This document shows, one piece after another, positions 25,401-55,117 of a stretch of DNA of 64,000 bases (position 1 is the first letter of the stretch; the number at the start of each line of letters is the position of its first letter). Where the stretch lies: the NCBI GenBank assembly GCA_034620365.1, contig JAQGEQ010000048.1, forward strand, positions 558,001 to 622,000, written 5' to 3'. Position numbers and translations under genes: made by a program. The DNA is from Pegea sp. RAD2-039. Taxonomy: Eukaryota; Chordata; Thaliacea; Salpida; Salpidae. Under the pieces are notes generated by a model, which saw only the letters and a program-made list of their open reading frames with translations, did not search any database and had not been told where the DNA came from.

Positions 25401-28400
25401 GCAATCTTGGGGAATAAATTTTCTGGAAAATCGACTGTGGTAAGAAGATTGACATCTGAGCACCGGATCGTTTCAATTTGTGCCGAAGAACTCTTACAAG
25501 AAGCATTACAAGAAGCAGAAGATTTAGATGAGATGAAATCTGATGATTGCTTGCAAGAAAATCAACAAGTTGAAGATATTGAGACATTAGAAGAAGAACA
25601 TGAAGAAGATGAACAAGAAAACGGTTTGAATTCTTTAAAATGTAAATTATCAAACTTCTAAGTTAAACTTTTTTCAAATTTCGCAGAAAAAACTAAAAAA
25701 GAAACCAAAGATACTTCAAAACTTATTTCAACTAAAGCTCGTTTAGGATGTATCGCTTTAGTGAGTCATCTTTTAAATGAGATACTTACAACTGATCTTT
25801 ATAAAAAATCTTAGGAACATTTGAAATCTGGAAGAGCTGTTCCTGATGAAGTTTTAGTTGCTTTAGTTGTAGAAAGAATCAAACAGCTCTCAGATGATTA
25901 TGGGTACATCTTGGATGGTTTTCCAGCAACCTCTAATCAAGCTGCTATTCTTGAACTTGCATTAAGCGGGAGAGAGTTTTCTCCTGCAGATGGTAGTGTC
26001 ATCAATCGAGTAGTTGTCAAGTAATTAAATAGATAGTCGAAAAAATATCACTTAAAATACTCTAAAATTATTTTTACAGAAAGTCTGCTCTAGTTAAAGA
26101 TCCTAAACCAGCACCAACCCAACAATCAGCTGGTCCTGCTCTTCATGTGGTTATTATTCTAGATGTCGACGATGAGTTAGTGATTAAAAGGGCACTGGGG
26201 CGTTGGGGTGAGTCAGTAAATGACTTGTGCTTGTTTGTAACTCATTTATGATGTCAACAGTTTCAAAGAATAATCATGAAGAATACCACACCGAGTTCAA
26301 TCCACCTCCATTTGGAAGTTTAACAGGAATAGCAGCAGATCAAGTTGAAACTCTTGAAGATGTAGGATTCGATAAAGAACAAATTCAAAATAGAATCATC
26401 AGTAAATTAGCTTGACATCGAAGTAAGCTTCAATTTAAATCTGAAATTTTCATTTGAAAGGTTACCATGACAACATCAAGCGGTTGGAGAGCTTTTATCG
26501 ATCTGCATCAATTGTTTGTCACGTGAACGGGAACTCGGAGTCGGAAGCAGTCTTTAAAGATGCTGAGTTGTCGCTGTTTGAAATGTTGGAGATGGTACCA
26601 ATGTCCTGAGGATGAACTAGATGAAGATTTTGTCGGTTTCTGTAATTTCAGATCCAGCAAATGAATCAACACAACAATGTGATTAGCTTGGTAGAATCGA
26701 AGGAAGCAGAAGCCACGAATCTTCCCGTTTCTACACCTTCTCCTGCTCCTCCGGTTGAAGTTGAAGTGGTTGAGAAAGTTGAGAAGTTGGTTGAGAGCTT
26801 CATCTCAACAGATCTTTCATCTAATCTTTGCAGAAAGTCTCCAAAATCTTCTGGTAGAGGGAGGCAAAAATCTGCAAAGAATAAGAAGCGAGAAAAGAAT
26901 TCAAATTCAAGAAGTAGCTCCGGCAAGAGTAAAAGGTGATCTTCATCCATTAGACATCAGTATAACTCTCAAAAATCTTTCTTATAGTAGACCCAGTTCT
27001 TCACCAGAAAAATACGAAACTGCTACTGAAGCAGTTGCTCCTCCAAAATCTCAACCAGGAGATCCAAACTGGTCCTACATCGAAGACCCAATAGACTTGA
27101 CTCTTGTCAACATGCTTGTCCCATTTTGGGATCGAACTGAAAATCTTTATGTGGCTACTTTGCAACATATCTTCCGAAAGACTCGCAAAGAACGAGAAGA
27201 GATATTAAAGTAATTTTTTGGAAGATAAATAAATGTTTCAGAGATTAAAGAGGATTTTATTTTTAGATATTTTTACAAGATTCAAATGAACTTCAAAGAT
27301 TTTCTTCAAAGATCAGATCAGAAGCAGCCGTTTGTTCATTCTTGGCAGATGGATTACAATAGTTTTGATGAAGACCTTCGGGAAGATGAAGAAGCTAAAA
27401 ATGAGATGCATCAAAGAGTGGAGGTTTGAATCTCATCTCTTTGTTTGATTGATTTGTTCAATTCGTTGATTAGGATTTGTGTGAACGACTGTGGGACATT
27501 TGTGATTCAAAAAAAGAAGAAAATGAAAATGAAAGAAATCAATTGATGACTTCTGGTTGGCTAGAAGATCATCTTTGTATCTTGACTAATCTCTACATCA
27601 TGATGATGCAGGTTTGTGTCATTTCTTGCTAAATCAACTTGAGATCTTCTTCTTCTATAACCAGAGTGAATTGGATCGCTTCCAAGACACAATAAACGTG
27701 ATGCGAGACTACTACACTGGAATTGCAGGAAAAGTCTTGTCAGAGGTTAACTCTGCAAGCAACTTCCTGCGACTTCCTATCTACGATCTGAGCACTGAAT
27801 CAAGTAAAGAAGGAAATAACTCTCAACAAGTTGGAAAGTATTTGAGATTTTTGTAATGGAAAGAATCAGTAACAAAAGTTTGTTTTCAGTGATGCTACAA
27901 CAACATCATCTACCAGTGAAGTGAACAAGCCATCTGGTAATTAGTTATTCAATTAGTAAAGATCGTTTTTGAAACATTCCTTGATGGCTTAGATCTTGGA
28001 AATGCTGCTGGAGTCGTCGATAGCCGTACAAAGATTCCTTTAATACCAAGAGGAAATTCGATTAGTTCACAAGCCCTGGAGCAAGAAACCTCAAAGAACA
28101 GAAAAGCGAAAACAGCAGCTGCAACATCTGGAACTGGAAATGCGTTGGACTACAGTTCATCTATGACGAAACAAGCGCGCGATGCTGAAGATAAGATGCT
28201 GGTTGAAGTCAGTCTGTTTGCTTGTAATGCTGTTGGAAACATGGTGACATCATATATAGCTGAAAAAGAAGTTGAAGATAATGAAGAAGAAAAGCGAAAA
28301 AGAGAAGAGAGTGAAGGACCTCAAGTTCAAGCGAAAAAAGGTCCTCTTCTATCTTGATGATCTTTTAAAACAAGATTTTATTAATTCAGGAAAGAAAAAT

Positions 28401-30862
28401 GATAAAAATAGCGCAAAGGGTAAAAAGGGGAATGATAAAAAAAGTCCGAAAAGAAACAAAAGTGGAAAGAGTAAAAAAGGAGCCTCATCAGCTTCTGATG
28501 ATCAATTTCTTGCAAATAGTCCTCCTGTGTTTGATCCAGTCGCTGAACTTCGTAAAAAGAAGATTGATCAGATGAAAGATGAATATATAATCGGTCTTCG
28601 TTTAGAAGAAAATAGAATCAAATTTCGACTAGACTTGATCAGGTTTCAACTTCTAAATCTTCAATTACTCTTCTACTTGAAGCAAAATAGTTTAAAGACT
28701 TTTGATGATTTTTAGAGACAAAGGCCGGGCAATGCTCAAATATTTGAACGAACAAGTTTCAAAAACTTTTGAGCATATGGACCAATGGATTGGACAACAA
28801 TATAAGCAAGAGATGTCTGCTATACATCTCTTGAGTGACGTTGCAAGACAATATATTGAAAAAAATGAGCCAATCACAGAAGAACTCCGTTTAGAGCAAA
28901 ACGTTTGTTTTCAGTTTAATTTTTTTTGTATTTTTTAGTTTCTAACTTTTGAATAAAAATTTTTCTTCACAGCGGAACTGTTTATTCAATACACAAGTGA
29001 AGTTGGTTGCCTCACCACCTCCACCTCCTTCGTCTGTACCAGAAGAAGATATTTGTCCAGATATCTTTACAATCTCTCAGCTTTATTTCTTGTTAGATTA
29101 CTTTTATGGTAAAAACTTTTAATTTCAGATTAATTGTCATTTTAATGAATATTTAAAAAAATGTTAAAAAGTTTTTTAGATGTCAGTAAAAGTGATTTTT
29201 TTTACAATCTTTTAGAAATTAATCCTGATGGTCTGATGGCTGCAAAAGAGTTTCAGAATATAATCTCAACTTCAACCTCTTTATCTTATGAAGGAAACCT
29301 CTTTCCTAGTATATGGGACAGTTTAAGTTATTCACAAGTAAATCTATTCTACTTCAACTTTATAATTCAATAATTATTTTTTAAACTACAGATGAAAAAC
29401 CTTTTGAAAATACTTGAAGTTGACCCAAATACAACTGTGGACTGGAGAAAATTTCTTTTTATTGCATCTGACCCTCCTAAGCCATCGATTGAAGAACTTC
29501 TAGACATTCGAGACGATTACATCAGAGCTGATATCGCTGGTAACGGATGGGTTCTTGAAGATCAATATTCAAAGGTTTGGTGTCCTTCAAAACAAAGTGA
29601 TTGTCTCAATATTTCATTGATATACTCAGATTCGATTATGGCCTTTCGTAAAAAGCCTCAACAAAAATGATAACTTTGCCACCAAACCAAGCTTGTTCAA
29701 TAGAGAAGAAAACCTCCGGAAATTTTACTTTCAGTTATTTGCTGATCATGAACAAGTGATTATGATACAGACAACCTAATAGCTTTTAACTTGTACTTTT
29801 TATAGAGCCCACCACGCGTCAACTATATCAACATGTTGATGTATTTTGCGATGAATACTGATTCTGTTATTGGCTTTTTTAAGTAAATTTCCTTCACAGT
29901 TGTTGGTTTTTTATTAAACTTTTTATATAATTTTCATAGCGCGTTATCAGTTGCATCAGGAAAGCCAATGCCGAATGTAAGTACAATAAAAACTCCTCTA
30001 AAAGAAGGGGTGTTGGAAGGGACTAGCTGCATCCCACAGGTTATTATTTCTTTTATAGAACTTCTTTTTTGTAAAACATTTTCTATTTTTGTAATTGATC
30101 GATCAGAACACAGAAATGACTCCTTCAGAAGAAGAGTTGGTGAAGGTGTCTCAAAATTATTCAGCTGATAAAATAGGAGTTGATACGATTCCTCCAACCT
30201 TGGTTCTTCCTTACTCTTGGTGGTTGACTCTTCATTACAACAGCACACAGCTTAGTGGTCAACATCGGTTTTCGAAATCCTTTCAATCAATTGACCCATA
30301 TTCGATGGTTAGAAAATCAGCTTTTGTAGAGAAAGGGAGTTTTTTATTTGAAAATTTGACTATTTTAGAACAAAATTTTGGAGATATACGCAGAATTAAA
30401 CAGTTTGAATGGAGAAGCTCTCCCTATACAAGTTTTGATGAAAAATCTTGTGTTGCAAGATGTAGTTCTGGAAAATAAACGATTCCAAATCATAGTGAGA
30501 TAATTTGTTTTATTCTAATTTTTATTTAAGATTATAAGAGAGTTGGTATCAACAACTTTTGTGTTTGGCTCCAATATTGTTGCTCAATTTGTCATGACGC
30601 TACTTTTGAAGTAGCTTTTTTATAAAAAAGTTCTATTATTTCAAAAATTTGAATATTATTATGCTTTTTTGTTGATTTAATACTTAATAAAAATCAGTAT
30701 TTTATTGCTTACTTTATCATGAATTTATTACTTAACGAATTAGTGTTAGATATCTAATTACTAAATTGTTGAACTTTTTAGGATTTGAAATCAGTTTTGA
30801 ATCTACCAACAGCTGAAGACAACGGCGAAAAAGATGATACCTTCTACCCATTTAAAACATAA
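22484..30862 (+). CDS. SPEF2: Sperm flagellar protein 2 (SPEF2)
   Basis: Axonemal protein of the central-pair C1b projection, needed for sperm flagella and motile cilia. I trace 37 exons, first 22484-22541 and last 30782-30862, totalling 5,565 nt or about 1,854 residues (human about 1,822). The N-terminal CH domain reads MTEILCKWLNDDLG..., SGYYLGEVFNKY, AKLNNFTRLEPTL. Then come a coiled coil (KTLVPRQVDIN..., RRRKVLMDQMKAH, QNRIFQEKQFEERRLKDYQD-like block) and an adenylate-kinase-like domain with P-loop GNKFSGKST at about residue 558, DGFPAT at about 687 and LID motif YHTEFNPP at about 773. The Pro/Lys-rich linker, PNWSYIEDP, ELDRFQDTINVMRDYY, VDWRKFLF, and the FYFQLFADHE and IYAELN blocks follow in human order. 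Two joins are uncertain. Exon 34 is given as 29940-30039, but a stronger donor (gtaagt) after 29976 is also in phase. The exon 35 donor at 30307 was chosen to reach the IYAEL frame. Confidence 0.95.
25356..26594 (+). other. SPEF2: Adenylate-kinase-like domain of SPEF2 with near-canonical motifs
   Basis: Exons 25356-25623, 25687-25760, 25815-26020, 26080-26207, 26261-26401 and 26461-26594 encode the nucleotide-binding domain. Visible motifs are Walker A (G-N-K-F-S-G-K-S-T), a GRAVPDEVL segment, DGFPAT (adenylate kinases have DGFPRT), a lid Arg pair in ALGRW, YHTEFNPP (closely matching the AK2 lid), and a closing IKRLESFY helix. Between Walker A and the DGF motif lies a Glu-rich insert. Whether it binds or turns over nucleotide cannot be told from sequence. 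Confidence 0.75.
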
Positions 30863-33409: not shown

Positions 33410-36400
33410 TTAAATACAGCGAGAATGTGAAGTCCAATCAGCTGTTTGTGAAAGTTTATCAAACTTGCAAATGCTGATACTTTTTTTGATATCTTCTATT
33501 TCATATCCTTCCTCACAAGTAATTTGACAAAATGAGTTTACCATTCTATCTCTAGTGCACGAAACTTTTTGGCCTTCAAGCTTTTCGAATGGAGCACACA
33601 ATGCTGTCAACAAACATGAAAAGAGTCGAAGGTAAAACAAAAAAAACTTTTTACGAATAATTGTTTTCGTTCAGTTAGATTACAATAATATTTATTTTAA
33701 TTTATTTTATAAAAACTAATAACAGTAATTTATATGTACACTAATAACAGTGTACAACCAACTAACCAAAAGTAAATTAGTTTTCTATCGGGCAGACATC
33801 TACTTACGTAAGCACAAAGGAGGAGGTGATGACCAAGCAGATGCTCCTGATAGACTTTGAATACACATAACCACTCCTATTCCTTGTAAAGTGTAATCAT
33901 CATTGCACTTAAATGTACAAGTTGATCCAATTTCTTCCCCATTATTGCATTCCATTTCAGCGTTAATAATTTTTGGAATTTGTTGACATTTTGCTAAAAA
34001 CCAACACACAGAGATAGATACCAGAAACCCAAAATATTTGACCTCACCTTTGCATTTTGGAGGTGAAACCGACCAACTGAGAGACCCATGTTTATCAGTT
34101 TGGCATTTGCTTACAACAGGAGTATCTCCATCATTACAAGTGAAGACACAAATTGAACCGAGAAAATATGATTCAGTACAAAGTTGGTGTTTCATATTAA
34201 GTACTAATGGACATCCTAAAACAAAGAAAGTAGATCATTTATTTGTTTACATAATAAAAAATAAACTAAAACTGATGAAAAATTTTGTGGTAGTTTACTT
34301 GTGTTAAAAATACTCCACAAAAATGTCTTAAAATTAAGATTCAGATGATTTTGTTCAGTATGTAGGAAAAAGTATGATTAAAATATCAATCATATCCAAA
34401 GCTGGTTTTGATTATTTGATAAAAAAATTGATTGAGGATTTTAAAAATCTAAAATGTTTCATAGCATGTTGAAAAAAAGGAAGACACAAAACATACTTTT
34501 CATGCATGTTGGTAGCTGAGGTAACCATTGTGGAACATGACTGGTACCAGATAAACACTGAACACTTGTGCTTCCAATCAATTCATGGTTTCCACTACAT
34601 GAAAACGAACAAGTTGAGCCAATAAAATTATCATTAGAGCAGAAAACATTTCTGTCATCGATTTCTTTAATAAGTTTGCATGTTGCTGAAATAAAAGCAT
34701 GCTAAAAAATGGTAACCATACAAACCAGCTTAATACTCACGCAAACATTGTGGAAATGCTGGTGTCCACATATTACCAAAAGCTGTATTTTGACAATAAA
34801 TAAATGTTGAACCTACCAGTTTGAATCCAGAATTGCATATAAATTGGCAAAATGAGTTTATCTTGTTTTCATTTGAACAAATAGTTTGACCATTCTCAAT
34901 TATTTTAGCAACATCACAAATTTGTACACATGCAGGTATTGTACTATTCCAATTAGCCTGCTTTTTACTTTTGACCTGACCGCAACTAATTGTTTTTGAA
35001 CCTTCCAGTTTGAATCCTTTATTACAAGAAAACGAACATACCGAGCCTCGTAATCTAGCCTTTGTGCAGTGAACTGAGCCATCTTCAAATGCATTTAAGT
35101 TTTTGCACATAGCTAAAAATTAAATTTCCTCATTAAAGTTCTCAAAAAGCAAAATATATTTTTAGAACTTGCTTACGAATACACTTTGGCTTTTTATTAT
35201 CCCATTTAAAGTTTCCTTCTATTGTTGAATAACAGGAAGATTGCTGGGGTCCCTTTAATTGAAAATCTGTTTGACATGAGAACTGGCAGCTAGAACCGAC
35301 GCGGAATCCATTATTACAACTAAAATTGAGACCTAAGCTTCTCGTAAGACTTTGACACTCAAAATATTCTATCAAAAAAGATAACTTTCTTAGATATAAG
35401 TTTCATTTTATGAAATATATCTTACTTTGACATCTAGGCTTTTTATTATCCCAATTAACACTTTCATCATCAAATTGGGTACATGTGGAAGTATTTTTGC
35501 CAATCAAATCATATTTTTCATCACAGCTGAAGGTACAAGTTGATCCTTGAAAATTTTTCTCGGAGCATTCTACCTGACCATTGCTAATTGATCTCATTTT
35601 GCGACATTTTTCTAAATTCAAATTAAACCAAAAATTATATTTATTAAACAGTTATTTGAGTGAAGATGACACCTTGACACACTGGAGGATCTTGACTCCA
35701 TTCTGCAAAGTCCTTTTTTCTTTCGCAGGTAATTTCATCAGCTCCAATTAAGTGGAATTTTTTTGGACATGAAATGTAGCAAGTAGAGTTGGAAAGATAT
35801 TTACTTGTGCAAGATATTTCTGCTTTTTTGACGTTCAAAGATCTACACTGGGGAATTTCTTTTTTGTGAAAGCAAGATTTTATTAAATTTATATCATGTA
35901 AAGTAACTTCGATTTGATATTTACTTTTGCAAGTTGGTTGTGGATTGCTCCAAATATGTTTTGCATCTTCTTGTAATTGACATGTAGTTTTTGGTTCTCC
36001 ATACATTTCAAAGTTTTCATTGCAAGAAAATTCGCATTTAGATCCAATAAAGAATGAGTTGGAACATTGAATATCGCCGTTAATGACTTTGTGTAGACTA
36101 TCACAGGCAGCTTCAAAATAAAAGCAGTTGGTCGATACATTGTAACTATTATTATATTTAAATGATTTAACTAAGTGAGATTATATCAAAACTTTTATCC
36201 AAAAAACCTAACACTATTTTCCATAACTTATAACAAACAATTTAATCACTCAAAACACTTTTAATTATATTAAAATTGATTGCTAAAAAATATGATGATT
36301 TTAAGAAATTTTAAGAAATTTATCTTTTTTAAGTTTTACTGGTTCTTAAGAATATTTTAAAAGATAGAATTAGAAACAACCTTTGCAGATAGGCATCGAA

Positions 36401-39400
36401 GAGTTCCAATAACTTTCACTGCTCATGTTTTGTAGACAAGAAACATATTTGTTTCCAACTAGCAAGTGTTTTTCGTCACAGGAAAACTCACAAGTTGAAT
36501 TAATATAATTTGAATCAGTGCAAATCGACGTGGCGTTTGTCGTTGTACGATCAACACAAGTTTTGCGAACTTAAAAATAAATTGGTAAGTATTAATTTTT
36601 GAAGAAAATATTAAAAGCTAATTTTTAAATGCTTTATAATAAAATAACTTTGATTTTAAGGTTATAAACTATCGTCTGAACCTTTACAAATAGGTGAGTT
36701 GTTATTCCAGTCGGCAGTTCCATTTTGTTGCAATAAACAAGTAATTTGTAAATCTCCAATAAGCTGAAATCGATCAGATTTACACTTGAAGCTACAAGTT
36801 GAGTTAGTATAAAAACTGTCTGAACAGTTCATATGGCCATCAAGTATAGTTGGTATATTTCTGCATGTTTCTAGAGAATAAAACGCTGCATGAGTTTTTA
36901 TTTATTTTTTTACTGCACACTCATAAATATAATATTACCACAAAAAAAAAATAATTAATTTAAATGTTTTCACATCAAACTTTAAAATTAATATAAAGGT
37001 TACATAAGAAAGATCTACATAAACTATAAGCTTGACATTAGTTACAATTTTCTTAAGTTCAATACCACTAAGTAACACCTTAAAAGTAAATTAGTTGAAT
37101 TTATTAAACGTTGTACAAAAAATACAATAAAAGAAATGATGCAACAAGAACGTAATTAAGTTTGAATCAAGTTGGAAACTTTATAAGAAACTAAATAAAG
37201 TATGCAAAATGTTAGATTCAAATGAAATTATGACTTTGATAAAATGTTTACTAATTTTCTTTTCATTCTGGGTTTAAGTAACGGTACATTTTCTAGTTGC
37301 ATTGTTGTGTAAACACATGTTTAGTATGAATAGAACTTAGATAAATCTACTTAAAAGTTGAATCTTATGAAGCAATTGTACAAAACAGTTTTACGTTTGA
37401 TAGCTTATACATTTTTGGTATATGTTTGACAGTTTATAAATTTTCTGAAGAGTTTTCAATTTATTTATAAAACATAAAATCTTATGATAAGCGCATTTTT
37501 CGAAATTATTAGCAGATTTTTTGCTAATATTTTGTTTTCTTGTTTAGAGATTATAGCTGGTTAAAAAAATTTCGAAATATTTTAGTTAAAATAGAAACAA
37601 AGAATAAAATATCAAAGGATTGATGAACCGGCGAAACTATTACTACCTTGTAGCACCCATTATAGTTCTTAATCAAAAATTAGGAAAGTAAAAACCTCTA
37701 CAATAAGGCAAAATATTATTCCAATTTGCTTTGTTTTTCCCGATACATGATAAAACATTTTCTCCAATTAATTTATACCCAGCCAAACAGGAAAAAGAAC
37801 AATTACTTCCAAGATAAAACTCGTTTGAGCAGCTCATCAACAAACTATCTTCTTTTCCAAGAAGTCCAATGCATCTTGGTTTCACTTGTGAGCAAGATAT
37901 CGGTAATTTAATCGATATTTTTATTCATCATTTTGTTAAAAGGTTTTATTCCTTTTTCATATCACTTCAATAAGATAGTTAAAAGCTTACTTTTGCATTC
38001 CGGTACTCTTTCATTCCATTCATATAAATCATTTCTCGATTTAGAACAAACTATTGATTGTGGACCAATCACTTCAAAATTTTTATTGCAGTTAAATGTA
38101 CAATTTGATTTATGAAAAAGTCCATGTGAGCAATTGAAGCTTCCATTATTCAAGTTACTAATTTCTTTACATTTACCTTACAAGAGAAAAAAGATAAAAT
38201 TTACGAAGTTTTGTGTAAAATATCTAAAACCAAACCTTTGCAAAAAGTTGAAGATGTATTCCAAATAGCTTTTACATCATCTAAGTTATTGCAGGCGACA
38301 GTTTCTGCTCCAACTCTCTCATATCCAAGCTTGCAGTGTAAGCTACATTTAGTTCCCGAATATAGAACTTCATTGTCACATTCTATAATCAACCCTTCCG
38401 TCTGTTTGATTGGTGTACATTTTGGCTTTTCTTGAAAATGTTTGCAGGTAAAATATTTTAATCGCGAAGAAAACAAATCCTTAAATGATTTATTTATTAC
38501 ATTGAGAGAATAAAAGTACATCATAGTTTGCAAAATATAGTTTTAATGTCTAACCACGACAGAATGGAACGCTTTGTGTCCATTTATAATTTTTTTCATT
38601 AACTTGAGAGCATGATGTAGTGTTTGATCCAACTAAATCATAGTTTGGTTCACATTTAAATCTACAAACTGTTTTTTCCCAAAAACGATCAGTACAAGTC
38701 ATAATACCATTATCAAAATCACTGATATCCAGGCACTTTACTGTTTAAAGAATCGTTTACCTAATAATTCTGAATGAAAAACGAGCAAGAACTGATTTAG
38801 CTTACTTTTACATTCTGGTATAGTTCCATTCCAACTTACACCTCCCAAGATATCAGTTGTACATCTTAATACTTCATTTCCAACAAAAGTGAACTCAGAA
38901 GGACAAGCAAACCGGCAAAAAGAGTTGATATAAAACTCATCTGAACACTTCATTAACAGTGAGTCACTTTTTACTAAGTTTTTACATTGAGGACGACCTA
39001 AAGATGAGTTTATAACAGTTATAGAGATTAGATGATAGTATTATAAACAAAATATCTGATTTAAAAAAAGTTTGCTGTGAATTTTCGACCAATTGTCAGT
39101 ATAATGTTTCAAAAAGATTAAAATTATAAATAAATACAAAATATCTTAAGATTGAATAACTTACTTTTACAAGAAGGAGATTTCCTACTCCATCTGTATA
39201 AGTTAGCTGAATATTTGATACACTTAATAGTTTCATAGCCAATTAATTTGTAATGTTTATCACAGGAAGCTTGACATGTTGATTGAAAGTACGAAGAATC
39301 GTTGCATGTTATTGCTCCATTTTCTATTATTGGAAGCTTGTTACAAATACCTGCAAGTAGATTAAACACGAATTGTTATTTGCTTTTTATTAAAATCAAC

Positions 39401-42400
39401 CACATACCTTTGCAATGCGGTTGCTTCATATTCCATTTTGTAGAACTTAAAAGTGTAGTTATACAAGTAAGTTTATTCTTGCCTATAAGTTCATATCCTT
39501 TTTCGCATTCGAACTGACAAATTGTGCCAACTCTAGAAGTTTCGCTTGAACACTTGATAATTAACCCTTCAGTTTTCTTTATTGATAAGCATCTTGGGGT
39601 TTCTTAAACGAAGCAATATTTTCAAGCTTTTCAAAGTTGTTACAAAAGATTTGAAAGTAAAGTATTTAAATGATTGAAATAATATAAGATTAGAGATTTT
39701 GATAAGATATTCTAGTAGATTGTTCTCTGCGAGTACCAGAGCTTTTAAAACACTTAAATCAGTTAAAGTTAATGACTTCGATAACATTTATTTTAATTGT
39801 TTTTCATATTTAGTTTGATGCAATTTTAGTTATTGTACTAAAAGCAAAATTTTACAAATTGTTTAGATCCAAAATGGTTTTCATTACAACTTTGCGATTG
39901 TCTTTAGATAACATAAATCTCATCAACTTAAGCTTGTGGTCAAAACAAAAACTATTCTATTATATTAGAAAAGTTAAAAGTAGAGATTTAGTTTTAATTT
40001 GGGTTAACTATTTTTATAAAAGCAATTTAAGATTTGCATTGTAAGCACGCTTATATTTATTTTGTATACAATAAAAATCTAATAATTTTTCATACTTGAA
40101 AATTAGCCACTCATTAATCATAAATATTGTATTATAAATTTGAATTTGAAGATTTATGTATTTTCAATTTGATGCCTTTTAATAAAACCTAAACCACGTT
40201 TTACTGAGTATTTTTTATACAATCTGCAGCATACTTTTAGAAACAAATGATTTGTATTTAAAATATTTCTGAAGTTTAAAGTAATCCTTTTTTGAAAGTC
40301 AAAGAATTTTGCTGTTTACAAAGCAACTAAAACTGTTAGATGGCTAGATTAGTAACCAGAACCTCATCCACTAGGATTAAGCTAAGGCACCTTTGCATTC
40401 TGGAAAGTGTCCTGACCACATAAAAGTTTTTTTATCTGATGTTTGAAGGCAAGTAGTAGAGGATGATCCGATTAAACTAAATACTTCATTACAAGTAAAC
40501 TTGCAAATCGAATTATTCATTGCTTTATCGGAACAAATTGTTGCTCCATGCAAAAGTTTTGGCAAGTCTGGACATTTTCCTAAAATCAATTTAATAAAAA
40601 TTATGACTCTTCAAATAGGCGATTAAATTGAATAGATTCAGAAGATTTATTTTCATGATATAATCCGTAATACTTTTAGTATTTACATTTAATTTAAATA
40701 TTTTCTTGATTCAATTTTGACACTAAAGCTTAGAAATTCAATTAGAGAATCTAAATAAACTAAAAAAAGTTTAAATATTTGAGTTCGTTTAATTTATTCA
40801 CCTCTACAAGAAGGAATAGTAGAACTCCAACTTACTCCCCCTTTATTATTTGGAGCACATGTTCTCACCTCAGATCCAATAATCTTATAATTTGATGGAC
40901 ACGAAAACTTACAGGTTGAATTGATGTATGATTCATTGGTGCAATCTGATTTTATCGTTGAGTCGTTTTGTTTGGGAGTAGAACAACGTGGAACAACTAA
41001 TGGAAAGCTCAATTCAAACACCTGATTAGAATGGACTCACTAGAAATTTACTTTTACAAAAAGGTTTGCTTTCATTCCATCTGTTTTTTGCATTTTCAAC
41101 TTGAATACATTCTAGTATATTTGAACCAATTAATTTATAGTGAAGATTACAGGTGAATTGGCATCTGGATGCTATAAACGATTTTTGATCACAAATAATT
41201 CTTCCGTTTTTCAACTCGCCAAGATCTTCGCATTTACCTGCGATAATATTGAACTTAAAATAAATTTTAGTGAAATTATCAATCTAAAAACCTCTACAAA
41301 TCGGCTGTATCCTATCCCACATTGCATATTTTATTCTTTTTTCATTACAAAATGTTATTCTTTGTCCTATTAAATCAAATCCACTAGAGCAAGAAAAAAT
41401 ACATTTCGTACCAGAAATTAGCTGAGAGTTTGTGCAATTGACGCTTAAAGCTTCAGTCAGTAGATGCTGTTTGCACTTAGGCCGAACTGTCAATTAAATA
41501 AATAATTATTTTACATCTAAATAAATAGTTTAGACTTGTACTGGTATAAGCTTCTATTGCAAGCTTATGTACAAAGTAAAATAAATGAAATAATCTTATT
41601 GGAGATAGAAATTAGTCTTTTCAAAGGTTGGGTCACTATTGATTATTACCTAGGCATTTTGGTTTTGTTCCACTCCACAGAAAAGTATTCTGGTTTCTTT
41701 GTATACAAGTACGGTAGGAAGAGCCAATTAAAAAATAATTCTCATCACATGAGAAAACACAAACTGATGAAATCGAATTATTTTTGCTACATGTTAGCTT
41801 CCCGTTTGAAATAGATAAAAGTGGTTTGCAAACTCCTAAAAATTAATAAACTGCTCAAAAATACTTGCATAAAATGTTTAAGTTGTTTCGTTTAATATGG
41901 ATTAGATACTAAGAAATTGAAAAATTATGAAAAAATGAACCAAAAATACCACAAAATAATCAAGAAAAGTTGTATGCAAAATTTATTTTCTTTAAATAGA
42001 AATATAGAAGTTTGAAATTACTTTCACAATTAGGGTGCTCTCCACCCCAAGTTACAACTCCATGTGTGTTGTTAGAACAAGTGACTTCAGTTGAAAAATT
42101 AGTTGTGTTACATTTAAGTTTACATCTAGAACCCAGATAAAAGCCATTTGTACAATTATAGGTAATTGAAAAAGACCAACTAATTTTACATTTGGGTTTT
42201 TCTGAAACGTGACAGTAATGCTTTTTAAAATCATAAAGCAAAATTATTCATACGAACATTTAGATTTTATTTGTAATCTTTATTCAACTCTTTTCCTTAA
42301 TCGTTTTTTTAAATGTTTTTGTTAAAATTGATTTTTATTCTCAGCAGCTTATTTAGTAAACTCTTATCGACCTTTGCATAGAGGTTCTTGATTATTCCAG

Positions 42401-45400
42401 TTTGCAGTTCCATCTTTATTATCTTTACAAGTTAATCTTCTGGGACCAACTCTAAAATATTGAGGAGAGCAGATAAAAATGCAATGAGAACCGATCATAG
42501 AGTTTTGTGTGCATTTTCTAAGCATTCCTTCTTTTACAGCTAGAAGCTTACAAGTCGGTGAATTATCTAAACAAAAAACAACAACTTCAATGTATACGAT
42601 AGTTTTAATCAAAATTTAAAGGTATTTATTAAAATTTAAGCTAAATGATATTAACTTTTGGGAAACTTTTCAAACTGAATCTCTTACTTATGCAAACTGG
42701 TAAAGGCCGAGACCAGCTTGATTCTTTGTTATTGATGGAACAACTGGACATTGGAGACCCTTTAATCTTAAAAGACCAACGGCATCCAAATCTAATTGCA
42801 GAGAAAAATGTTTAGTTACAAAATCTTCTGAAAAATTGCAAAATAATAACTCATACCGACAAATGACTTTAGTTGAACCTTCTTGCTTGCAAAATGAATA
42901 CCCGTTTTTGATACTATCGGGACGTGGTCGACATTGTATAGGAGTGCAAACAGGAGGATTATCATTCCATTTACCTTCTTTTTCTGTATCAGTAGAATAA
43001 TTCCAGACATTAAGCATCATTTAATGTTTTTGAACAAAAATCTCAATACTTGCAATTTTCTCAATTAACATATCTAAGCTGGGTTGGAAACTAAATAACT
43101 TTTGACAAGAAGCTCACGAAACAGAGGCATTTAAAAATATTAGAATTACACGAAGTTCAATTTAAATTCTTAATGTGGTTTTTAGTGTTATATGCAGTGA
43201 AAAAGTGTTAAAAAGTAAAACTAATTTATTCAGATTTTATCAAATGGGTAAAAGTATATTTTTATCGCATAAGTTAATTTAATTAAATAGTATTTGTAGA
43301 TATTAATAACTTAGTATAAAGTTTGACAAATTGAAAAATTTTTTGAAAATTAAATCTTACTGCAATAGATTAGCTTTGCTCCTTGCAAAATGAAATTTTT
43401 TTCACATTTGAATTGACAACTGCTTCCAACTTGAAAACTTGAGCATACAACTCTTCCATTAGATATTTGTTCAATTGGCTCACAAGAAGACAAAGCTGCA
43501 ACCAATCAGGACTCAAAAGTACATTTCATATATTGCTGTTTGATAAGATTTCTAAATATGTTATCTGGTTATTAATGAAACTCATTAACAAACTAGAATT
43601 AATCACGTAATCAACTCTTGCAAACTTCAGTTTCGGTTGAAAACTGTTTTTAATTATCGATAATTAGAAATTTTTTAAGTTATCACAAACTCACCAACTA
43701 AAATATGCTTTGACGATCTATAAACAATGTGTTACAAGCTTGTTTTACTCTAGAAGGTTACAAGTAAAATTTATACAGATGCTTGTGTAATAAAAATACT
43801 TTTTTACTTGTTAACAGGAAGTTTTATCTGTTTTGAACTTTCAATATTTAATTTGAATAAAACAAAACTTAATTTATCGTGGTGACCCCATATAATTAAG
43901 CCTTATGTAAAGTTATGTCGATTTGATAAAGTCAAAACTGAAATAATTTACAATAAATCTAACTTAAAACTAATATTACAATTAGGTTTTATTTGATTAG
44001 CGATTAATAAAACTTTCAAACCTTGAAAATCTTGCCTAATAGATTTGTGTCTCACAAAACTTGATGATACATATTCAGTTTGATTTTGTTTATGGACTGC
44101 CTGTGCAAACTTTTTACGATTGCATTTATTTTCAGAACAACAAAAGTAGGCGACGGAATTTAGAGTCTGTCGTGAGCCTAGCCAAGGATTCTATAGATAT
44201 AGAGTTACATTAAACATAATTTTGAATTAACCCAGAGTCTTATGTAAGATATTCAACGATGCATTGGTTTTTAATTCTTATAAATCAATTATCACATTCT
44301 TAAAATTATTTGTCCTTATTATAGCAAATTGAATTTATAGCATGACTCAGTTTTGAATTAAGCTCTTAAGTATTAGTTTTGCTAATTTCTTGTCAAGTTA
44401 AATTTCATATTTTTATTTAGTATGTAGCTGAAGTTAACAAGCAGTTTTCAAACATTAGATTTTTGTTCAATATAAAACTACTTCACTATTTTTCTAATTT
44501 TGATAAAATTTCAAAAAATCAAATTTATCGAAAGTAAAAATCCAAATTGTTACTTTTTGACTTTCAGCCAGACATGCAGCATTTTGTTTACATGTTTTTG
44601 TAATTTGTATTCTCCCACGATAACTTCCAATTCTTTTTTCCATCATACATACATCCTATAAACAAAGTTTTTAATTTTTTTAATCATTTTTTTAGACTAA
44701 TGACCAGAAGTACGCTAAAATAAAAAACTAAAGATACTGTCAACTTTTTTGTGAATTTTACAAAAGTCACCCACTGTTGGACGCATACATTTGATTAATT
44801 TCCCTTTCAATTGACATTCATATTCAGATTTCGCTTCTTTACATGTGTAGCATAGTAAACCTGTTCATGTAAAAAATTTCTAAAAAGGTATGATTAAAAT
44901 AAACTTTTGAAGTCGAAACTAGAAATCTTTAGTTTGGAGCTAAAAGTTTTATTATAACATTTATAAGAATTTATTGTCATAATATCAAGTAAACTTCCTA
45001 AACAAGTTAAGACTGTTTGAGTGTTTAACTTAGACAAAAATGCTGAAAATTTAATACATGAAAGAATTTTATAAACATATTTCATTAAATTATACAAACA
45101 AATGGTTCGTTATAAATTTTCTTTCAGAAATAGAATCCACCAGTTAAGTAGGTTCAAAAGTGTTTGGAAGAAAAAAAGAACTCCACAAAAAATTAATCGA
45201 AAGTTGAATTAACTTTAAACTCAAAAACCTTCTAGTCAAATTAAAATAAGTCTTGGTATATTAGAAACTTATCCTACAGACGACCCTCGCGTTTAGTGGT
45301 CAAAAGTGGTTTAATAAAATTATCTTCATCCTAGTAATGGTTGCTACTATTTCGTAATGAATGAATCAATGATAGATGTTCTTGAACTAAATAGTTACTT

Positions 45401-46609
45401 ATCAGATTATAAAGAAAGTTGCGCTTATTCAGTCTATTACTAGATTAATTTAATCTTATTACTAAGCTATTATGGTAACTTAATGATGCTTACAGCTTTA
45501 ATCTTATCTCAAATCATTTGATATAGCATTATTTTATAAATATCTTAGTACTTTGTGATCGTTTTATTTCAAAACTTAGCATCAATTAATACATGCTCAG
45601 AAAAATGTTTTTCTTCTGTTAACTTATCGATTTTTTCAATAAAAAATCTCAACATTTTGAATAATAAACCATTTAATTACTAAACACACATATAGTAAAA
45701 AAGTTTATTTTCAAATAGTTTGTAAAATTTTATTTTAATTTCAGTAACTTGTGGTTTCGAGTAATTAGTTTAAGTTTTTAGTCTATACAAATTTTGAAGA
45801 CTTTATTTACTTTTTATTTTCATACATCAATCAAAATGATGATACTTGAAAACTTCAAGTTTATTTACAATTTACAAGTTTTAAATGAAATATTTTGCAT
45901 ATAAGAATAATTCAGTAGCTTTCTTACTTAGTTTTAAATTAAAAAAATTATAACTATTATTTTAGATTTTCTATCGGCACCATTGCTTTGTTTTGTAAAA
46001 ATTCAGTTTTAAAGCTTTCAGAGGTATTTTAAACTTTGGCGTAAACACTTATAAAAGATTTGAAAACTTTAGGATTAATACAAATTTAAGGGTACAAATT
46101 ATACCAGATAAACCCAGGAAGGCAGCCTTTTTTAGTTAAACTTAAGTATATATCAAAACTGACAGAAATTTTGTGAAAATTTAATTATCGATGGTTAAGA
46201 AGCTAATTTGTTTCGTTTAAATCTTGCTTAAATTAACAAGTTTTACAATTTCAGTCAAAAGTAGAAGATACCTAAAAAAGTTAAGCTAAAACAGAAAGTA
46301 ACTTTAATAATTACTGGAAGTGAAAAAAGTAGGAACAAGCTAGTTAAATTATTAACTAGAAAAAGTTTCTTAAAAGTTTTGTAAAGAAGGTATTTCAACT
46401 TTATTGCTTTAATAGAAAATAAACCTAATGGTTAGTTCATTTAATTTACTGATCTTAGTAAATTATCTATCGCATAAGTCAAGGTCTTCTTTCTAGACAC
46501 TTTAGTTCTTGACTAGAAGAAGTTTACAAAAATAAGTTAATTAATGTTACTTACTATTAATTTGTGTTATATAGATTAACAGAACTAATACGATAAATGC
46601 CAATTTCAT
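33410..46609 (-). CDS. Secreted protein: signal peptide, Ly6/uPAR (LU) domain, 28 sushi/CCP modules
   Basis: I trace 32 exons (5,574 nt, about 1,857 residues). Exon 1 (46555-46609) encodes a signal peptide (MKLAFIVLVLLIYITQIN). Exons 44775-44860, 44554-44655 and 44118-44190 form an LU domain with ten cysteines, from LLCYTC to the hallmark CCSENKCN. The next exons are sushi modules: 43361-43495, 42857-42983 and 42688-42791 encode modules 1 and 2; then 42372-42566, 42022-42201, 41650-41835, 41292-41486, 41052-41237, 40802-40996, 40391-40579, 39408-39602, 39165-39350, 38806-38997, 38555-38740, 38236-38430, 37991-38176, 37696-37884, 36682-36870, 36381-36569, 35925-36110, 35673-35858, 35426-35611, 35177-35368, 34741-35112 (two modules), 34497-34685, 34048-34215, 33808-33993, 33410-33603. 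Each has four Cys, LIG before Cys3 and a Trp before the last Cys. There is no transmembrane segment or GPI signal at the end. It may be an adhesion or complement-like protein; the function is unknown. The intron 1 join and the donor at 44118 are the weakest. Confidence 0.88.
44118..46609 (-). other. Signal peptide and Ly6/uPAR three-finger domain of the LU/sushi protein
   Basis: The four exons 46555-46609, 44775-44860, 44554-44655 and 44118-44190 encode the secretory leader and a complete LU fold. It has CxxC at the start, single cysteines in EC, KC, VC, TC and AC contexts, and the terminal CC....CN pair: ten cysteines in all. Exon 2 to 3 joins in phase 0 using a gtgggt donor. The next exon (43361) begins the first sushi module, joined in phase 1. 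Because the LU fold ends cleanly at the splice junction, this could instead be an independent LU gene whose last exon ends at a stop further into intron sequence. The phase match to the sushi exon favours one gene. Confidence 0.7.
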
Positions 46610-47479
46610 TTTTCAGTGGTCTTCAATTCGTACTTTTATCCAAACAAATTTTCTTCTTTTCAAGGAATTTCATAAAATCCCAAACTTATTTTAATAGCTG
46701 TTTGTTTAATAACTTTCAACAATAAACAATTTCTTAAATAATTTTTAAATATTCAACAATGTGACCAAAAATAATTTTTAGCAGATTACCTTTCCTTGTT
46801 TCAAAGAAGTTGAATTAAAAATAATTTAAAGTTGCAAAATGTTTTAATATCTTAATCAAACTATTTTAGTTTATGAAAGTTTGCTAGTAGAGACATCTAG
46901 TGATTGAATAAAGAATAACTTTCTTAATCTGAAAACAATATTTTAGTTATTTAAAGTCGACCACTAAAACTTTATGTGTTCAAATACTTTCAACAAAGTA
47001 TTACCAGATATTAATAGTTTTCATTTACAAAATAAGTGAACAACAATTTTACAGATTTTGTGCTTGGATGTAATTTTCTTTGTGATTTTTACTTTTATCT
47101 TGTGAATCCTTAAGATTTAGTTTATACATCAGTATTAAAGTATGCAAAAGTTAAATTTCAGTTCTTTTTTATTATTTTGAGTGAAGTTAACAGTAAAATT
47201 CTAAATCTTTATATTCTGCACAAATTACAGCTTCTTCTACAGTTTAGATGCATGAAAGGAATATATTTGAAATGAAGACAAAACCCTTGTAACATCCAAG
47301 AATAACACAACATATTTGTATCTTCACAAGCTATAACCAAAAAAAATAGTATGAAATTATAAAAAAAGTCTCGTAACATTTATTTTAACTAAATTCTACA
47401 TAATTGTTAAATAAATACATTGAAAAAGAGTACAATAGATATCAACTGTAATATAATTTAAAGATTTGATTTAAATAAA
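46610..47479. other. Spacer between LU/sushi gene and astacin 1
   Basis: AT-rich, no exon seen. It lies upstream of the LU/sushi start and downstream of the astacin 1 stop, so it likely holds the former gene's promoter. No motif was recognised. Confidence 0.6.
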
Positions 47480-49445
47480 CTAACTTCGATAATCAACTCC
47501 ACAAAGCTTAGAACAGTTTTCTAACATGAATCTTGGGAAATATTGGCATGCGCCTACTCTGTGAAGCTCATTACAAAGATTGTGAAGATTTTGACATGTG
47601 TCAAACTTTTTTTGTGTTTTCATGCCTTTTACATCACATTGATACAATGCGTTAATTTTTTGAACATCTTCAAAAGACAAACCTTCACGCTTAAAGTAAA
47701 GTTTTATTAGAATGAAAACTAAGGTATTCAAAAGTATAGTTTACAGAAATTCGAAATCTATTAGTTGTTGATTTTCAAAATTTTATCGAATTAAGAAGTT
47801 ACTTGTGTTTTTAATATGCTTCCGTACAAGTCAGTTATTGTTGGTTTACCATTAGAAGAATATTCAAAGCTTGTTCCATGCATTATAGAGTTAACATCAT
47901 ATTCACCTATACTTTTGATTATTTGCTTGTTAAAATTATACCCCATATCTATAAGTTATTGTGTCAAAATTTTAATTTAATTGTTGACAAATACCATATT
48001 GAATATTTTCAAAATGAACTTTTATATGCTGGTCACGGTCATCTCTTGACTGTTCATGCCAGAAGCCAAGTGAATGCATAATTAGATGAATTACAATCCC
48101 TTTAATTTGACAACCACGTCCTAAAGATATCTATAACAGAAGTATGTCGTCTGATTACAGTTTTTTAGAACGCGGTGAAAAGTTATATCTGTCCACTTAT
48201 AACTACTTGCTCCATAAACCATTTAAAATAGATTATTTTTGTAATACTTATAGTTTAATTTTTTATAGATTACATTTAATATAACGTAATAACTGTACAA
48301 ATTACTAATGCTTAAAATAAATGCGATGATAAACATCAAAACGTGGTTTGGAACGCATACCAGCTGCTGTTGCTTAACAGCACCAACAGATGAATAGCAG
48401 ACACCTCCATCGACAAAAGTTAAATAGTTGTCTTCATCACTTCTAACTTTAAATTTTAGACATATTTGTTGTACTTCAAACTCTTGCAAGGCCTCATTGA
48501 TAACTAACCTCCCTTTTATTCCTATAATAGATAAAAAATTAAGAAGATTTTCATACAGTATGTACGTTACAATTAGAGTTGGTGCAAACAGTTACATGTT
48601 TATTAAGTATCCACGACCACTAAGCATAATTTCGACTGTAAGATAAAAACTTTTTGAAAAAAAAGCTTTTGTTTGCTGAAGAGCCTTAAAGGACATAGTA
48701 CTAAACCTATTATAAAGAACGAATTTATTAAACTATTAAATTAGCACAAAATCGAGCAGTAATTTGTTAGGTATTCATATAGATAGCTATTTTATTCACT
48801 GACCTATTGAGCTGTCAATAATGTAGGGAATCACATTAAAGTTGTCTGTCTTATATAAATTCCAAATAGGTAGATCAAGCGAGATGTTTGTATTATTTTC
48901 TTTTTGTGGCTTTTCTAAAACATTTTCTAAGTATTCTTTCATGACTCCTACTACTTTAATATCTCCTTCAAATAAAGCTGAAATTGCAAAAAAATTTGAT
49001 TATCACTTAGAATTGATTTAGATAATCTTTAAGATCTTACAGTTTTCATCAATGCCTGCACATTCGCATGTATAGCACCCTGATTCATGTTTAATCCAAC
49101 CAAACAGACAAGTTTTAGTACAGTGGGAATAAAGACATTTTATAAATCCCTTCTCTCGTAATCGATCCTCTTCACTGAGTCCTGAAGACAATTTTCAAAT
49201 TAAAAGTTACATTTAAATCAAATTTGGTTAAATTCTTACGCTTGGAGCACTCGTTGATTTGATGTAATGGATACAAAGAAGGATTATTCAAAATCAAAAA
49301 ACAATCGTCTTGAGTATATGCTGCATATCGGTGAATCGAAACGAGAAAAACTGAAAAGTAAATAAATAAATGCAATCTGATGAGGATAAACTGATCAAAT
49401 ACATAAAAAACTTAACATACTAATCAGCCAAAGAAGTATCTTCAT
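47480..49445 (-). CDS. Diverged astacin-like secreted protein, probable pseudoprotease
   Basis: Eight exons, from 49445 downwards: 49421-49445, 49240-49350, 49041-49181, 48804-48977, 48361-48521, 47995-48130, 47803-47948, 47480-47689; 367 residues. Order: signal peptide ([19 protein letters not shown]), an antistasin-like cysteine module ([15 protein letters not shown], then GCYTCEC), propeptide with the aspartate-switch FEGDI, astacin domain, and one ShK module (TCQNLHNLC to NCSKLC). In the zinc site the three histidines and the [12 protein letters not shown] sequence are kept. The second position, the catalytic Glu of HExxH, is Leu ([11 protein letters not shown], about 219-229), and the Met-turn is SIMHG, where astacins have SIMHY. 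Both changes predict loss of peptidase activity while zinc binding may persist. Same domain plan as the array genes next door, but only one ShK and no Thr-rich linker. Confidence 0.88.
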
Positions 49446-50181
49446 CTGCAAGTACTGTAGTTTAGAATGAGCAATTATTTATAAGCTTTGCTGGTTCAAT
49501 TGACTTCATGCCGAACCTCTACACAAGTCAAAACTTCTTTATCGATGTGTTCTTATCACTGTTAGATTCTTATCGCATATAGGTCTTCGCATGACATCAT
49601 ACACACAGTATTTGTATAATCAGTTTACTGAAGTTATTCAAGAGCTAAAAAGTAGTTATTGAATATCAAATCACAATTAAAAAACAAATTTTTGGACTAA
49701 AAATCTAATGGAACAAAGTATTAACAACATTTTTTAAGTATCCATTAAGGTTGATTTTTAGTATAACTTAAAATGATGCTTTTAGTTTTGTTGTGTGCTT
49801 TTAATATAAAGTCATTGATAAATATCAAGATGTTTAAACAGCTGTAAGGTTTTTATCATTTTGATATCTTTATTTAAATTCATATTCAATAATTGACTTA
49901 TTAAAATGTATAATTACAAACTTTTCTACTTTTAATGATAACTAAGGCTTATAAAAAGTGAGGTTTTTCTGAACTGCATGATTTTAACTTTTTATAGGAG
50001 TTTTTTGGATTTCGTTAATATTTCTGTAGCGTTAGAAAATTTGATAAAAGCACAATCATTTAAAAATGTTTATTTCTTACAAGTGCTTATACAAAATACT
50101 AGTAGTAGAAAACCGATTAATAAGACTCATGATCAAAATATTTGCTGAGTATGATACAAACAGATTCGACAAATTGAATAT
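49446..50181. other. Spacer between astacin 1 and astacin 2; start of the tandem array
   Basis: AT-rich. From about 49790 on the sequence is homologous to 54727 and 59617 onwards, so the first tandem unit begins here. No coding exon was seen. Confidence 0.6.
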
Positions 50182-53100
50182 TCAACAGAATTCACAACTT
50201 GATTGACAATATTTCGTCATGAAATAGGTGTACATCTTATCTTTACAATAACCTTTTTTACTCCAGTATGGGCAACTTCCAAAATTATCTTCACATTCTG
50301 CAAAATTTAAATATGTTAAAATATTGAAGAAATCATTTGTTTACAATAAAATAAACACATACTTGGCTTTGTTGTTATAGGTTTAGCTGTTGTTTTATTT
50401 TTGCAACTCAGACAGCAATAAGTCTTCAATGTTTTTTTGCACTGATGTAGCATAATATACTTACAACCACTAGATCTATCAACACAAGAGCTTTTTGTTA
50501 TTGTTGTAACAGGTTGAATTGTTGTTGTTGTCCGTTTTGTTGTTGTAATAGGCCGGGTTGTTGTTGTAAGTTTACTTGTCGTTGATTGAGTTTGTTTGCA
50601 ACTTTGACAACAATCTGCAGTCATAAAACCGGGAGTTCTCTGACATTCACCATTCTTGGCCCAATACTCGCAGTGTTTGTTTTTATCTTTGCAAAGCATT
50701 TCTTTAAGTTTAAAAGTAGAAAAAGTATTTCCTTCACATCCGTAAAGCTTATTAAGTAGTTCGATATCAGATTGAGCAAATTCTTTTCTCTAATAAAATA
50801 AACTTTTCATCACTTATTAGAAAAGATTTTGTTAATGCTTTTAATTGTTCTTTTTCTTTAATTCAAGCTAACATTTAGTAACACTCTCATTTACTATAAT
50901 GTATTAATGCTAATCATTAAATTTAAAAAATGATTAACTGCAAATAATTACAGTTAGTTACTGACAATGACTGATGAGAAGGAAGATAAATTACCTAGAA
51001 GTTAATAATAAAGAACAAAAATTTTACTAACCTGTGTTACAAGAGGATTACCGTTGATGTCAGTTATTGTGGGTTTATCGTTACTGCTAAAAGCATAGCT
51101 GCTATAATGCATAATTGATCCAACATCATAAGCAATGCCCAAGGAATTAATTATTTTTGTACTAAATTTGTTAAAATTGTGCTTTGCATCTGAATAAAAG
51201 AACAAAAGATTATGAAGAAACTTGACAAGACTTAAATAGTAAATAAAAAAAATTAAACCTACTTTCTTTGATGTTTTCTTCATGAATTCGAACATAATTA
51301 TCTCTATCAGGCCGACTTTGCTCATGCCAAAAACCTAAAGCATGTAAAACCTCATGTATTACCGTTCCTTTATACCAGCAACCGTATCCTAATGAAATCT
51401 ATAAAGTATTTTCGTTTTATTTAAAGTTTATTTAACAGACAAAGTTTGGTTTAATGGGGTGACCTGTTGTTTTTCCTTTACTGCTCCAACACTAGAGTAG
51501 CAACCACCACCTCTGAAAAACTCAATGAATTTGGTTTGTACAGTTCTAGGCTTGAGACGGATACAAGTAAATTTGTTGAAATCTTTAATAGCGGCTTCAA
51601 TTGCTTTTCTTCCTTCATCGCCTAAAGCATCACCATTTAATTTGAATACATTTTATCATTGAAAAATATTTTTTTAACTTACCAATATTACTTGAAATAT
51701 CATAAGGAACAATAAAGTTGTTGCCTGAGGGATACATTTTCCAGAGAGGAAGAACATTTGTCGCTTTTTTAGCTTCGACATTTGCTACATTTGTCGGATT
51801 AATATAATTTCTTTTTATATATTTTTCGACTTTTTCGCTAAGAATGATGTCACCTTCAAACATTCCTAAGAAATTTTTAGAAGTTATCGATTTGCAGTTA
51901 TAGCATCAGATTAAATACAAACCATCTGTTTTGCATTCACATGTCAAGCAACCGAATAAGTCCAAACGTCTTCCGAAAATACAACTTTCTTTACAGGTCA
52001 GTTTTGGGCAATTTGAATATGAGCGCATCTGTATGCTTGTTGAAGAGTCCAAGACTAAAAAATACTTCATTCAAACAGTTTTTTTTTTAGCGTCAAACTT
52101 TACACAAACCCTGGTTGCATTGATTGATGACAGACAAGGGGTACAAAGGTGGGTTTTCAAATACTTTTGTACACTCATCAAATCCTAATGGTGCTGACAT
52201 GGACTTTTCAAACACAAAAGTCAATAGTAAAAGACCTAAGGAAAATTTTCCTTAATTGTTAACTTTATGATCGTCACTTACTTATAAAACATATTTGGTA
52301 ATTTTTCATCCTGTTTGTTGCCATCAAATTCTTTAATTTTTGATTACAAATATTTTATCTCTGTGAAATAAATCGATATTGTTGTAATGCATTTCAATAA
52401 AAAAATATAAAAAAATGCTTCAAACCTTCGATATAGTTGCTATATCGTATTTAAACTCAAGTTCTTAAGGACTATATATAACAATGTTAGTTCTGATTCT
52501 TTGATAGAAGTTATTGAGCTTTTATAGCAAACAGGAAACACTTTCTGATATTTTTGTAATTAAAAAAAAAAACTTGTAGTCTGACTCAAAGTTTATCTTC
52601 AAAATAATCATGTCATGACAATAGAATATCGACATTGCTAACTTGTTTCGATTTCTGCTAAACTGATAACTGATATTTTTATTAATAAATTTCAAAATAA
52701 AGAGAAATATAATTTGCTTTACAAAAGCTCCTTATTTTTGCCAATAAGTCATTTCTACTGTAATGAAGCGTTTTCTGCCAAAACATGACAATAACATCCA
52801 GTGAAGAATTGTTAAAAAAACATTTTTGACTAATTGTTTGTTAAAGTGTCCCAAAAAATACTGATGATAAATTCGAATTAAAAACTAAAGTAGTAAATAC
52901 TAACACGTAGACCTCTAATAACTTGTTGAGTACAAAATACTTGAAAAGTACGAACATCATATTATATAAAGTTAAATACAATGATGCTTCAGGCAACACT
53001 GATCTAAAATTATTTTTGCCATAAATTTGAGGTACATAAATGGTTTACACATCTTTTCGATAAATAGCCAATATTGATATTATTTATTAAGGATTGATCT

Positions 53101-54745: not shown

Positions 54746-55117
54746 AAGTCATTGATAAATATCAAGATTTTAAAACAGCTGTAAGATTTTTATCATTTTG
54801 TTATCTTTACTTAAATTCATATTCAATAATTGACTTATTAAAATGTATAATTACAAACTTTTCTACTTTTAATGATAACTAAGGCTTATAAAAAGTGAGG
54901 TTTTTCTGAACTGCATGATTTTATCTTTTTATAGGAGTTTTTTGGATTTCTTTAATATTTCTGTAGCGTTAGAAAATTTGATAAAAGCACAATCATTTAA
55001 AAATGTTTATTTCTTACAAATGCTTATACGAAATACTAGTAGTAGAAACCCGATTAATAAAACTCATAGTCAAAATATTTGCTGAGTATTATTCAAACTG
55101 ATTCAACAAATTGAATG
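52310..55117. other. Upstream spacer of array copy 1 and downstream flank of copy 2
   Basis: About 2.8 kb between astacin genes, repeated in each unit. A minus-strand ORF at 53184-53468 recurs in all units but lacks any recognisable domain or splice context. I take it as carried along by duplication. No other element was seen. Confidence 0.6.

What the first reader, a model, noticed from the sequence alone, without database searches (positions are those of the whole stretch)
33410..46609. Secreted LU domain joined to 28 sushi modules: an architecture I do not know
Thirty-two phase-consistent exons give a signal peptide, a ten-cysteine Ly6/uPAR domain and 28 sushi modules, with no membrane anchor at the end. 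LU domains are normally single or paired small secreted or GPI proteins, and long sushi arrays belong to complement regulators, selectins and polydom-type proteins. I know of no described protein joining them this way. The large size, secretion and adjacency to secreted proteases suggest an extracellular-matrix, adhesion or humoral-defence role (inference).
Basis: partly seen in the sequence, partly recalled or inferred. Interest (0 to 1): 0.78.

Follow-up and report, generated by a model that had tools for sequence, protein, structure and literature searches.

The report
LU-headed giant sushi-repeat secreted protein
An animal gene encodes a long secreted protein made of one Ly6-type binding head on a stalk of 28 sushi repeats, and the same genome holds several relatives that join the same head to sushi repeats and often a von Willebrand A domain, so the odd-looking join is a real gene family rather than an accident of reading.

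Summary
32 phase-consistent exons (46609 to 33410, minus strand; 31 of 31 acceptors AG, 31 of 31 donors GT) give 1,889 aa: signal peptide, ten-cysteine LU domain, 28 sushi modules, no internal stop, no anchor. Each module has six cysteines; 10 + 28 x 6 accounts for all 178.

The LU-sushi join is not a chance neighbour. Six further loci of the same genome carry three LU exons followed by sushi exons on the same strand; five run on into vWA. In all eight LU units modelled (window plus seven) the first LU exon is 86 bp and the phases are 1-0-0-1. In one relative the modules behind LU also share split-intron positions and phases with the window gene.

Best reading: a branch of an LU-sushi-vWA secreted family built by shuffling phase 1-1 exons; here the array expanded in two-module units and vWA is absent. 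Function (matrix, adhesion or humoral binding) is inferred. No transcript was available. Nine on-topic searches of an open-licence paper library showed no description of the combination. The species was not identified.

The parts
46555..46609 (-). exon 1: signal peptide, MKLAFIVLVLLIYITQIN, ends in phase 1
   Evidence: found by the signal-peptide filter
44775..44860 (-). exon 2: LU domain part 1 (86 bp; donor ACA|GTGGGT), corrected from my first model
   Evidence: 86 bp also in seven relatives
44554..44655 (-). exon 3: LU domain part 2
44022..44190 (-). exon 4: LU domain part 3 (CC....CN end) plus a linker of about 34 aa; ends in phase 1 at a weak donor (CAAG|GTTTGA)
   Evidence: GTTTGA is also the exon 3 donor in the C116 and C18 (L041) relatives
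42688..43495 (-). exons 5-7: sushi modules 1-2, each split by an intron; same intron phases (1, 1, 2) as modules 2-3 of the C8 relative
35177..42566 (-). exons 8-27: sushi modules 3-22, one module per phase 1-1 exon
34741..35112 (-). exon 28: sushi modules 23-24 in one exon
33808..34685 (-). exons 29-31: sushi modules 25-27
33410..33603 (-). exon 32: sushi module 28 and stop codon one residue after its last cysteine; no membrane or GPI anchor, no vWA
   Evidence: no vWA found in the window

Best explanation
A single gene for a secreted, disulphide-rich mosaic protein: a three-finger (LU) head on a long stalk of 28 six-cysteine sushi modules. It belongs to a family in this genome in which LU, sushi, vWA and EGF modules were combined by shuffling of phase 1-1 exons; this member multiplied its sushi array in two-module steps and has no vWA. 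It most likely acts outside cells as a long multivalent binder in matrix, cuticle or body fluid, with the LU head and the array holding different partners. Shown: exon layout, domains, family, two-module periodicity. Inferred: one transcript, secretion from the signal peptide, the binding role, and loss (rather than never having) of vWA.
For: Exon chain and phases. All 178 cysteines accounted for as 10 + 28 x 6. LU by Pfam and by PDB profile. C8 relative: signal peptide, LU, sushi, vWA, 966 aa; C116 relative: signal peptide, LU, sushi, vWA, 413 aa. First LU exon 86 bp and phases 1-0-0-1 in 8 of 8 LU units modelled: window, C8, C116, L040 (two), L041, L042, L043. LU followed by sushi on the same strand at the window and six more loci (L017, L021, L040 second copy, L041, L042, L043) by profile scan, with vWA after the sushi in five of these six, all but L043, whose stretch ends inside the sushi part. 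Window modules 1-2 align with C8 modules 2-3 with matching split introns. Module similarity over modules 3-28: even lags 80.7-97.4, odd lags 65.6-73.0. For the one module pair tested (11-12) the eleven best of 42 genome matches, two of them itself, lie in this array.
Against: No cDNA. The donor after exon 4 (GTTTGA) is weak, and exon 4 read on reaches its own stop after 24 codons, so a short LU-only form cannot be excluded. Three of the four LU-related Pfam models that hit stay under their cut-offs, and the full C8 and C116 proteins show no LU family at E <= 1 in Pfam; their LU rests on 37-38% identity to the window LU and on the joint profile. Pfam UPAR_LY6 over the whole genome gave two matches, both under the cut-off, neither in this family. 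Three plain LU units (L023, L025) are not next to sushi. The LU profile was built from the window, C8 and C116, so only L039-L043 are independent finds. The vWA of C116 lacks the first Asp of DxSxS. No functional data.
Confidence: 0.85

Rival explanations
1. Two neighbouring genes: a small secreted LU gene (exons 1-4, own stop) and a separate sushi gene.
For: Weak donor after exon 4 and an in-frame stop 24 codons on; plain LU genes exist in this genome (L023, L025).
Against: LU is followed by sushi at six further loci by profile scan; LU ends in phase 1, the phase in which the sushi exons start, in 8 of 8 units modelled; no signal-peptide exon found in the LU-sushi intron by a simple filter (0 candidates).
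Confidence: 0.08
2. A humoral-defence or complement-like protein: LU and sushi arrays are the folds of CD59 and of DAF/CR1, and it would regulate or opsonise with thioester proteins.
Against: A shared fold shows no function, and PDB E-values of long arrays grow with repeat number; LU is nearer LYPD1/LYPD6 than CD59 in the PDB search; TED proteins are common in animals (recall).
Confidence: 0.3
3. A matrix, cuticle or adhesive-secretion component, polydom- or selectin-like in its use of sushi stalks.
For: Relatives carry vWA and one locus EGF modules (EGF read by eye), typical of matrix mosaics (established knowledge); the C8 vWA keeps DxSxS.
Against: The window member has no vWA and no EGF found; the C116 vWA lacks the first Asp of DxSxS; no expression data.
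Confidence: 0.5
4. A decaying or non-expressed copy.
For: No transcript evidence available.
Against: No stop in 32 exons and 168 of 168 expected sushi cysteines kept.
Confidence: 0.04

Closest known systems
SVEP1/polydom (recalled)
   Same: secreted mosaic with a long sushi array; relatives here also carry vWA and, at one locus, EGF modules
   Different: polydom starts with vWA and has EGF and pentraxin; this protein starts with LU and then has only sushi; relatives have vWA at the C-terminus
Ly6/uPAR family, nearest LYPD1, LYPD6, LYPD6B
   Same: LU domain by profile, ten cysteines, CC....CN end
   Different: those are small GPI-anchored or secreted LU proteins (recalled); here LU heads a 1,889 aa mosaic
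Complement factor B/C2 (recalled)
   Same: sushi followed by vWA, as in the relatives
   Different: factor B has no LU and a C-terminal serine protease; the window protein has neither vWA nor protease
[not shown]
   Same: sushi modules with six cysteines (selectin count recalled)
   Different: no C-type lectin, EGF or transmembrane segment here; by structure CD55 and other complement regulators rank above E-selectin
Complement regulators CR1, DAF/CD55, factor H
   Same: tandem sushi arrays; CD55 is the nearest structural match of the modelled module
   Different: four-cysteine modules (recalled) against six here; no LU

Membership tests
Ly6/uPAR (LU) domain | ten cysteines with CC....CN ending | tested here: met
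Ly6/uPAR (LU) domain | curated Pfam cut-off of a three-finger family | tested here: inconclusive
   Toxin_TOLIP passed (22.0 vs 21.2); UPAR_LY6, UPAR_LY6_2 and CD59 under their cut-offs; no LU family at E <= 1 for the C8 and C116 relatives
Sushi/CCP array protein | tandem PF00084 modules | tested here: met
   E 8.3e-124, 26 stretches; 28 modules; sushi fold of one modelled module
LU-sushi-vWA family of this genome | three LU exons with phases 1-0-0-1, first one 86 bp, then sushi | tested here: met
LU-sushi-vWA family of this genome | C-terminal vWA | tested here: not met
   no vWA found in the window; so a variant member
SVEP1/polydom | N-terminal vWA, EGF, pentraxin (recalled) | tested here: not met
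   Pfam scans of both halves found none
Selectin | C-type lectin and transmembrane segment (recalled) | tested here: not met
   no lectin by Pfam; the protein ends one residue after the last cysteine
Selectin | sushi module nearest to selectin sushi | tested here: inconclusive
   [not shown]
Complement regulator | control of C3/C5 convertases | not testable with these tools
   needs biochemistry

The most novel reading that the evidence does not exclude
An undescribed family of secreted proteins in which the three-finger LU domain became a phase 1-1 shuffled module, heading sushi, vWA and EGF mosaics, with one member that grew into a 28-module rod.
Probability: 0.6. Interest if true: 0.55.

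Novelty: new variant of a known kind. Interest (0 to 1): 0.48.

Why it matters
LU domains are known mainly as small stand-alone receptors, blockers and toxins (established knowledge). A family in which LU is a mobile module joined to sushi, vWA and EGF widens what the three-finger fold is used for and shows exon shuffling at work: module borders, intron phases and a two-module duplication step can be read directly in one genome.

Tried and rejected
Exon 2 ending at AAAAAA|GTTGAC gave 11 cysteines and weak LU hits; replaced. Separate signal peptide for the sushi part: no candidate in four introns by a simple filter. vWA hidden in the window: none found; best tblastn E 0.47. Structure of the two-module exon 28 from one sequence: mean pLDDT 39.3, useless. 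That the six-cysteine modules are nearest to selectin sushi: not borne out, CD55 ranks first. Rotifer genome papers, passages only (PMC10395877, PMC11954553, PMC6555955), did not settle it. Papers: ten searches, nine on the topic (33, 40, 41, 49, 50, 51, 53, 71, 72; one search listed 20 of 44) and one on rotifer genomes (34); listings only, apart from those three papers and passages of PMC13409769; no listing or passage that I saw described LU with sushi.

Full report

The LU domain. My first model ended exon 2 too late; LU hits were weak and the best Pfam hit was an unrelated family at 0.0021. The relatives showed where it ends: 86 bp. With that end, UPAR_LY6_2 reaches 1.7e-6, CD59 5.5e-6, UPAR_LY6 3.1e-4 and Toxin_TOLIP 2.9e-4; only the last passes its cut-off. 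A profile of three LU domains (window, C8, C116) finds LYPD1 at 4.3e-6, then LYPD6 and LYPD6B, in the PDB. The C8 and C116 proteins themselves show no LU family in Pfam at E <= 1; they are called LU by their 37-38% identity to the window LU with the same cysteine frame.

Is the join real? LU searches with the C8 and C116 domains find further LU exons on C13, C14, C18, C38 and C264. I read 14 LU units in all: eleven at the window, L017, L021, L039 (three), L040 (two), L041, L042 and L043, and three plain LU units in L023 (two) and L025. Of the eleven, seven are followed by sushi on the same strand by profile scan (window, L017, L021, L040 second copy, L041, L042, L043) and two more by eye (first copy in L040, first unit in L039); the other two, in L039, stand among EGF and vWA modules. 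Five of the six relatives among those seven run on into vWA; L043 does not within its stretch, which ends among the sushi exons. The three plain units have no sushi next to them and were missed by the scan. LU exons seen at C13:318618, C14:154444 and C38:508458 were not read. The profile contains the window, C8 and C116 domains, so only L039 to L043 are independent finds. Eight stretches with sushi but no LU (L027, L028, L030 to L035) serve as a negative control.

Same layout, and homology on both sides of the junction. In 8 of 8 LU units modelled (window, C8, C116, L040 twice, L041, L042, L043) the first LU exon is 86 bp and the phases run 1-0-0-1, so in these LU ends in the phase in which sushi exons begin. 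C8 sushi modules 2-3 align with window modules 1-2 (score 178), and the two introns that split them fall at matching places with the same phases; C8 has one more module between LU and this pair. LU and the first sushi exons have therefore been inherited together. A simple filter found no signal-peptide exon in introns 4, 5, 14 or 21 and found the true exon 1. Against this, the donor after exon 4 is weak (GTTTGA) and read-through meets a stop after 24 codons, so a minor LU-only form remains possible; but GTTTGA also serves as the exon 3 donor in the C116 and L041 models.

How it arose. LU and sushi modules are bounded by phase-1 introns, which lets them be shuffled without breaking frame (the principle is established knowledge). 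Module similarity alternates: over modules 3-28 mean scores are 80.7 to 97.4 at even lags and 65.6 to 73.0 at odd lags, so the array grew in two-module steps. The one pair searched against the genome (modules 11-12) matches its own array best. No vWA was found in the window, so this member has lost it or never had it.

What it does. A secreted rod with a three-finger head is best explained as a multivalent extracellular binder; matrix or cuticle use is my first choice and humoral defence the main rival. The rival has some support from 37 thioester-domain exon matches in the genome and from the structural nearness of the module to CD55, but a shared fold does not show function.

Known or new. 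Nine on-topic searches of the open-licence PMC library showed no paper, by listing or by the passages seen, that describes LU joined to sushi (searches; passages); subscription papers and protein databases were out of reach. The modules and folds are known; the combination looks new, and I rate it a new variant of a known kind.

Noticed in passing
47200-62000, minus strand: Four astacin motifs and four ShK motifs in a row, read as four tandem astacin-ShK genes; three motifs are [12 protein letters not shown] (61172, 56248, 51356), the fourth, next to the LU-sushi gene, reads [12 protein letters not shown] (48088), with Leu in place of the catalytic Glu: perhaps an inactive protease.
   Followed up: partly
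L039 (G000:C14:171001-177500): A mosaic with three LU units among EGF, sushi (both by eye) and vWA modules, possibly one gene.
   Followed up: partly
L040 (G000:C13:988001-996600): Two tandem copies; the first has LU and a sushi start but no vWA found, the second is LU-sushi-vWA; LU exons nearly identical, so probably a recent duplication.
   Followed up: partly
G000, whole genome: Rich in sushi exons (150 matches among 150 scored of 638 candidates), vWA (130 matches, 150 of 211 candidates scored) and thioester domains (37 exon matches).
   Followed up: no
24000-30500, plus strand: A convergent gene with a P-loop-like exon (GNKFSGKSTVV); Pfam hits all under cut-off (AAA_28 0.0057, ADK 0.078); resembles a cilia or flagella protein (recall).
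   Followed up: no
L037, L038 (G000:C1 and C278): Partial 18S copies: four pattern hits on C278, and one rDNA end next to a long simple repeat on C1.
   Followed up: no
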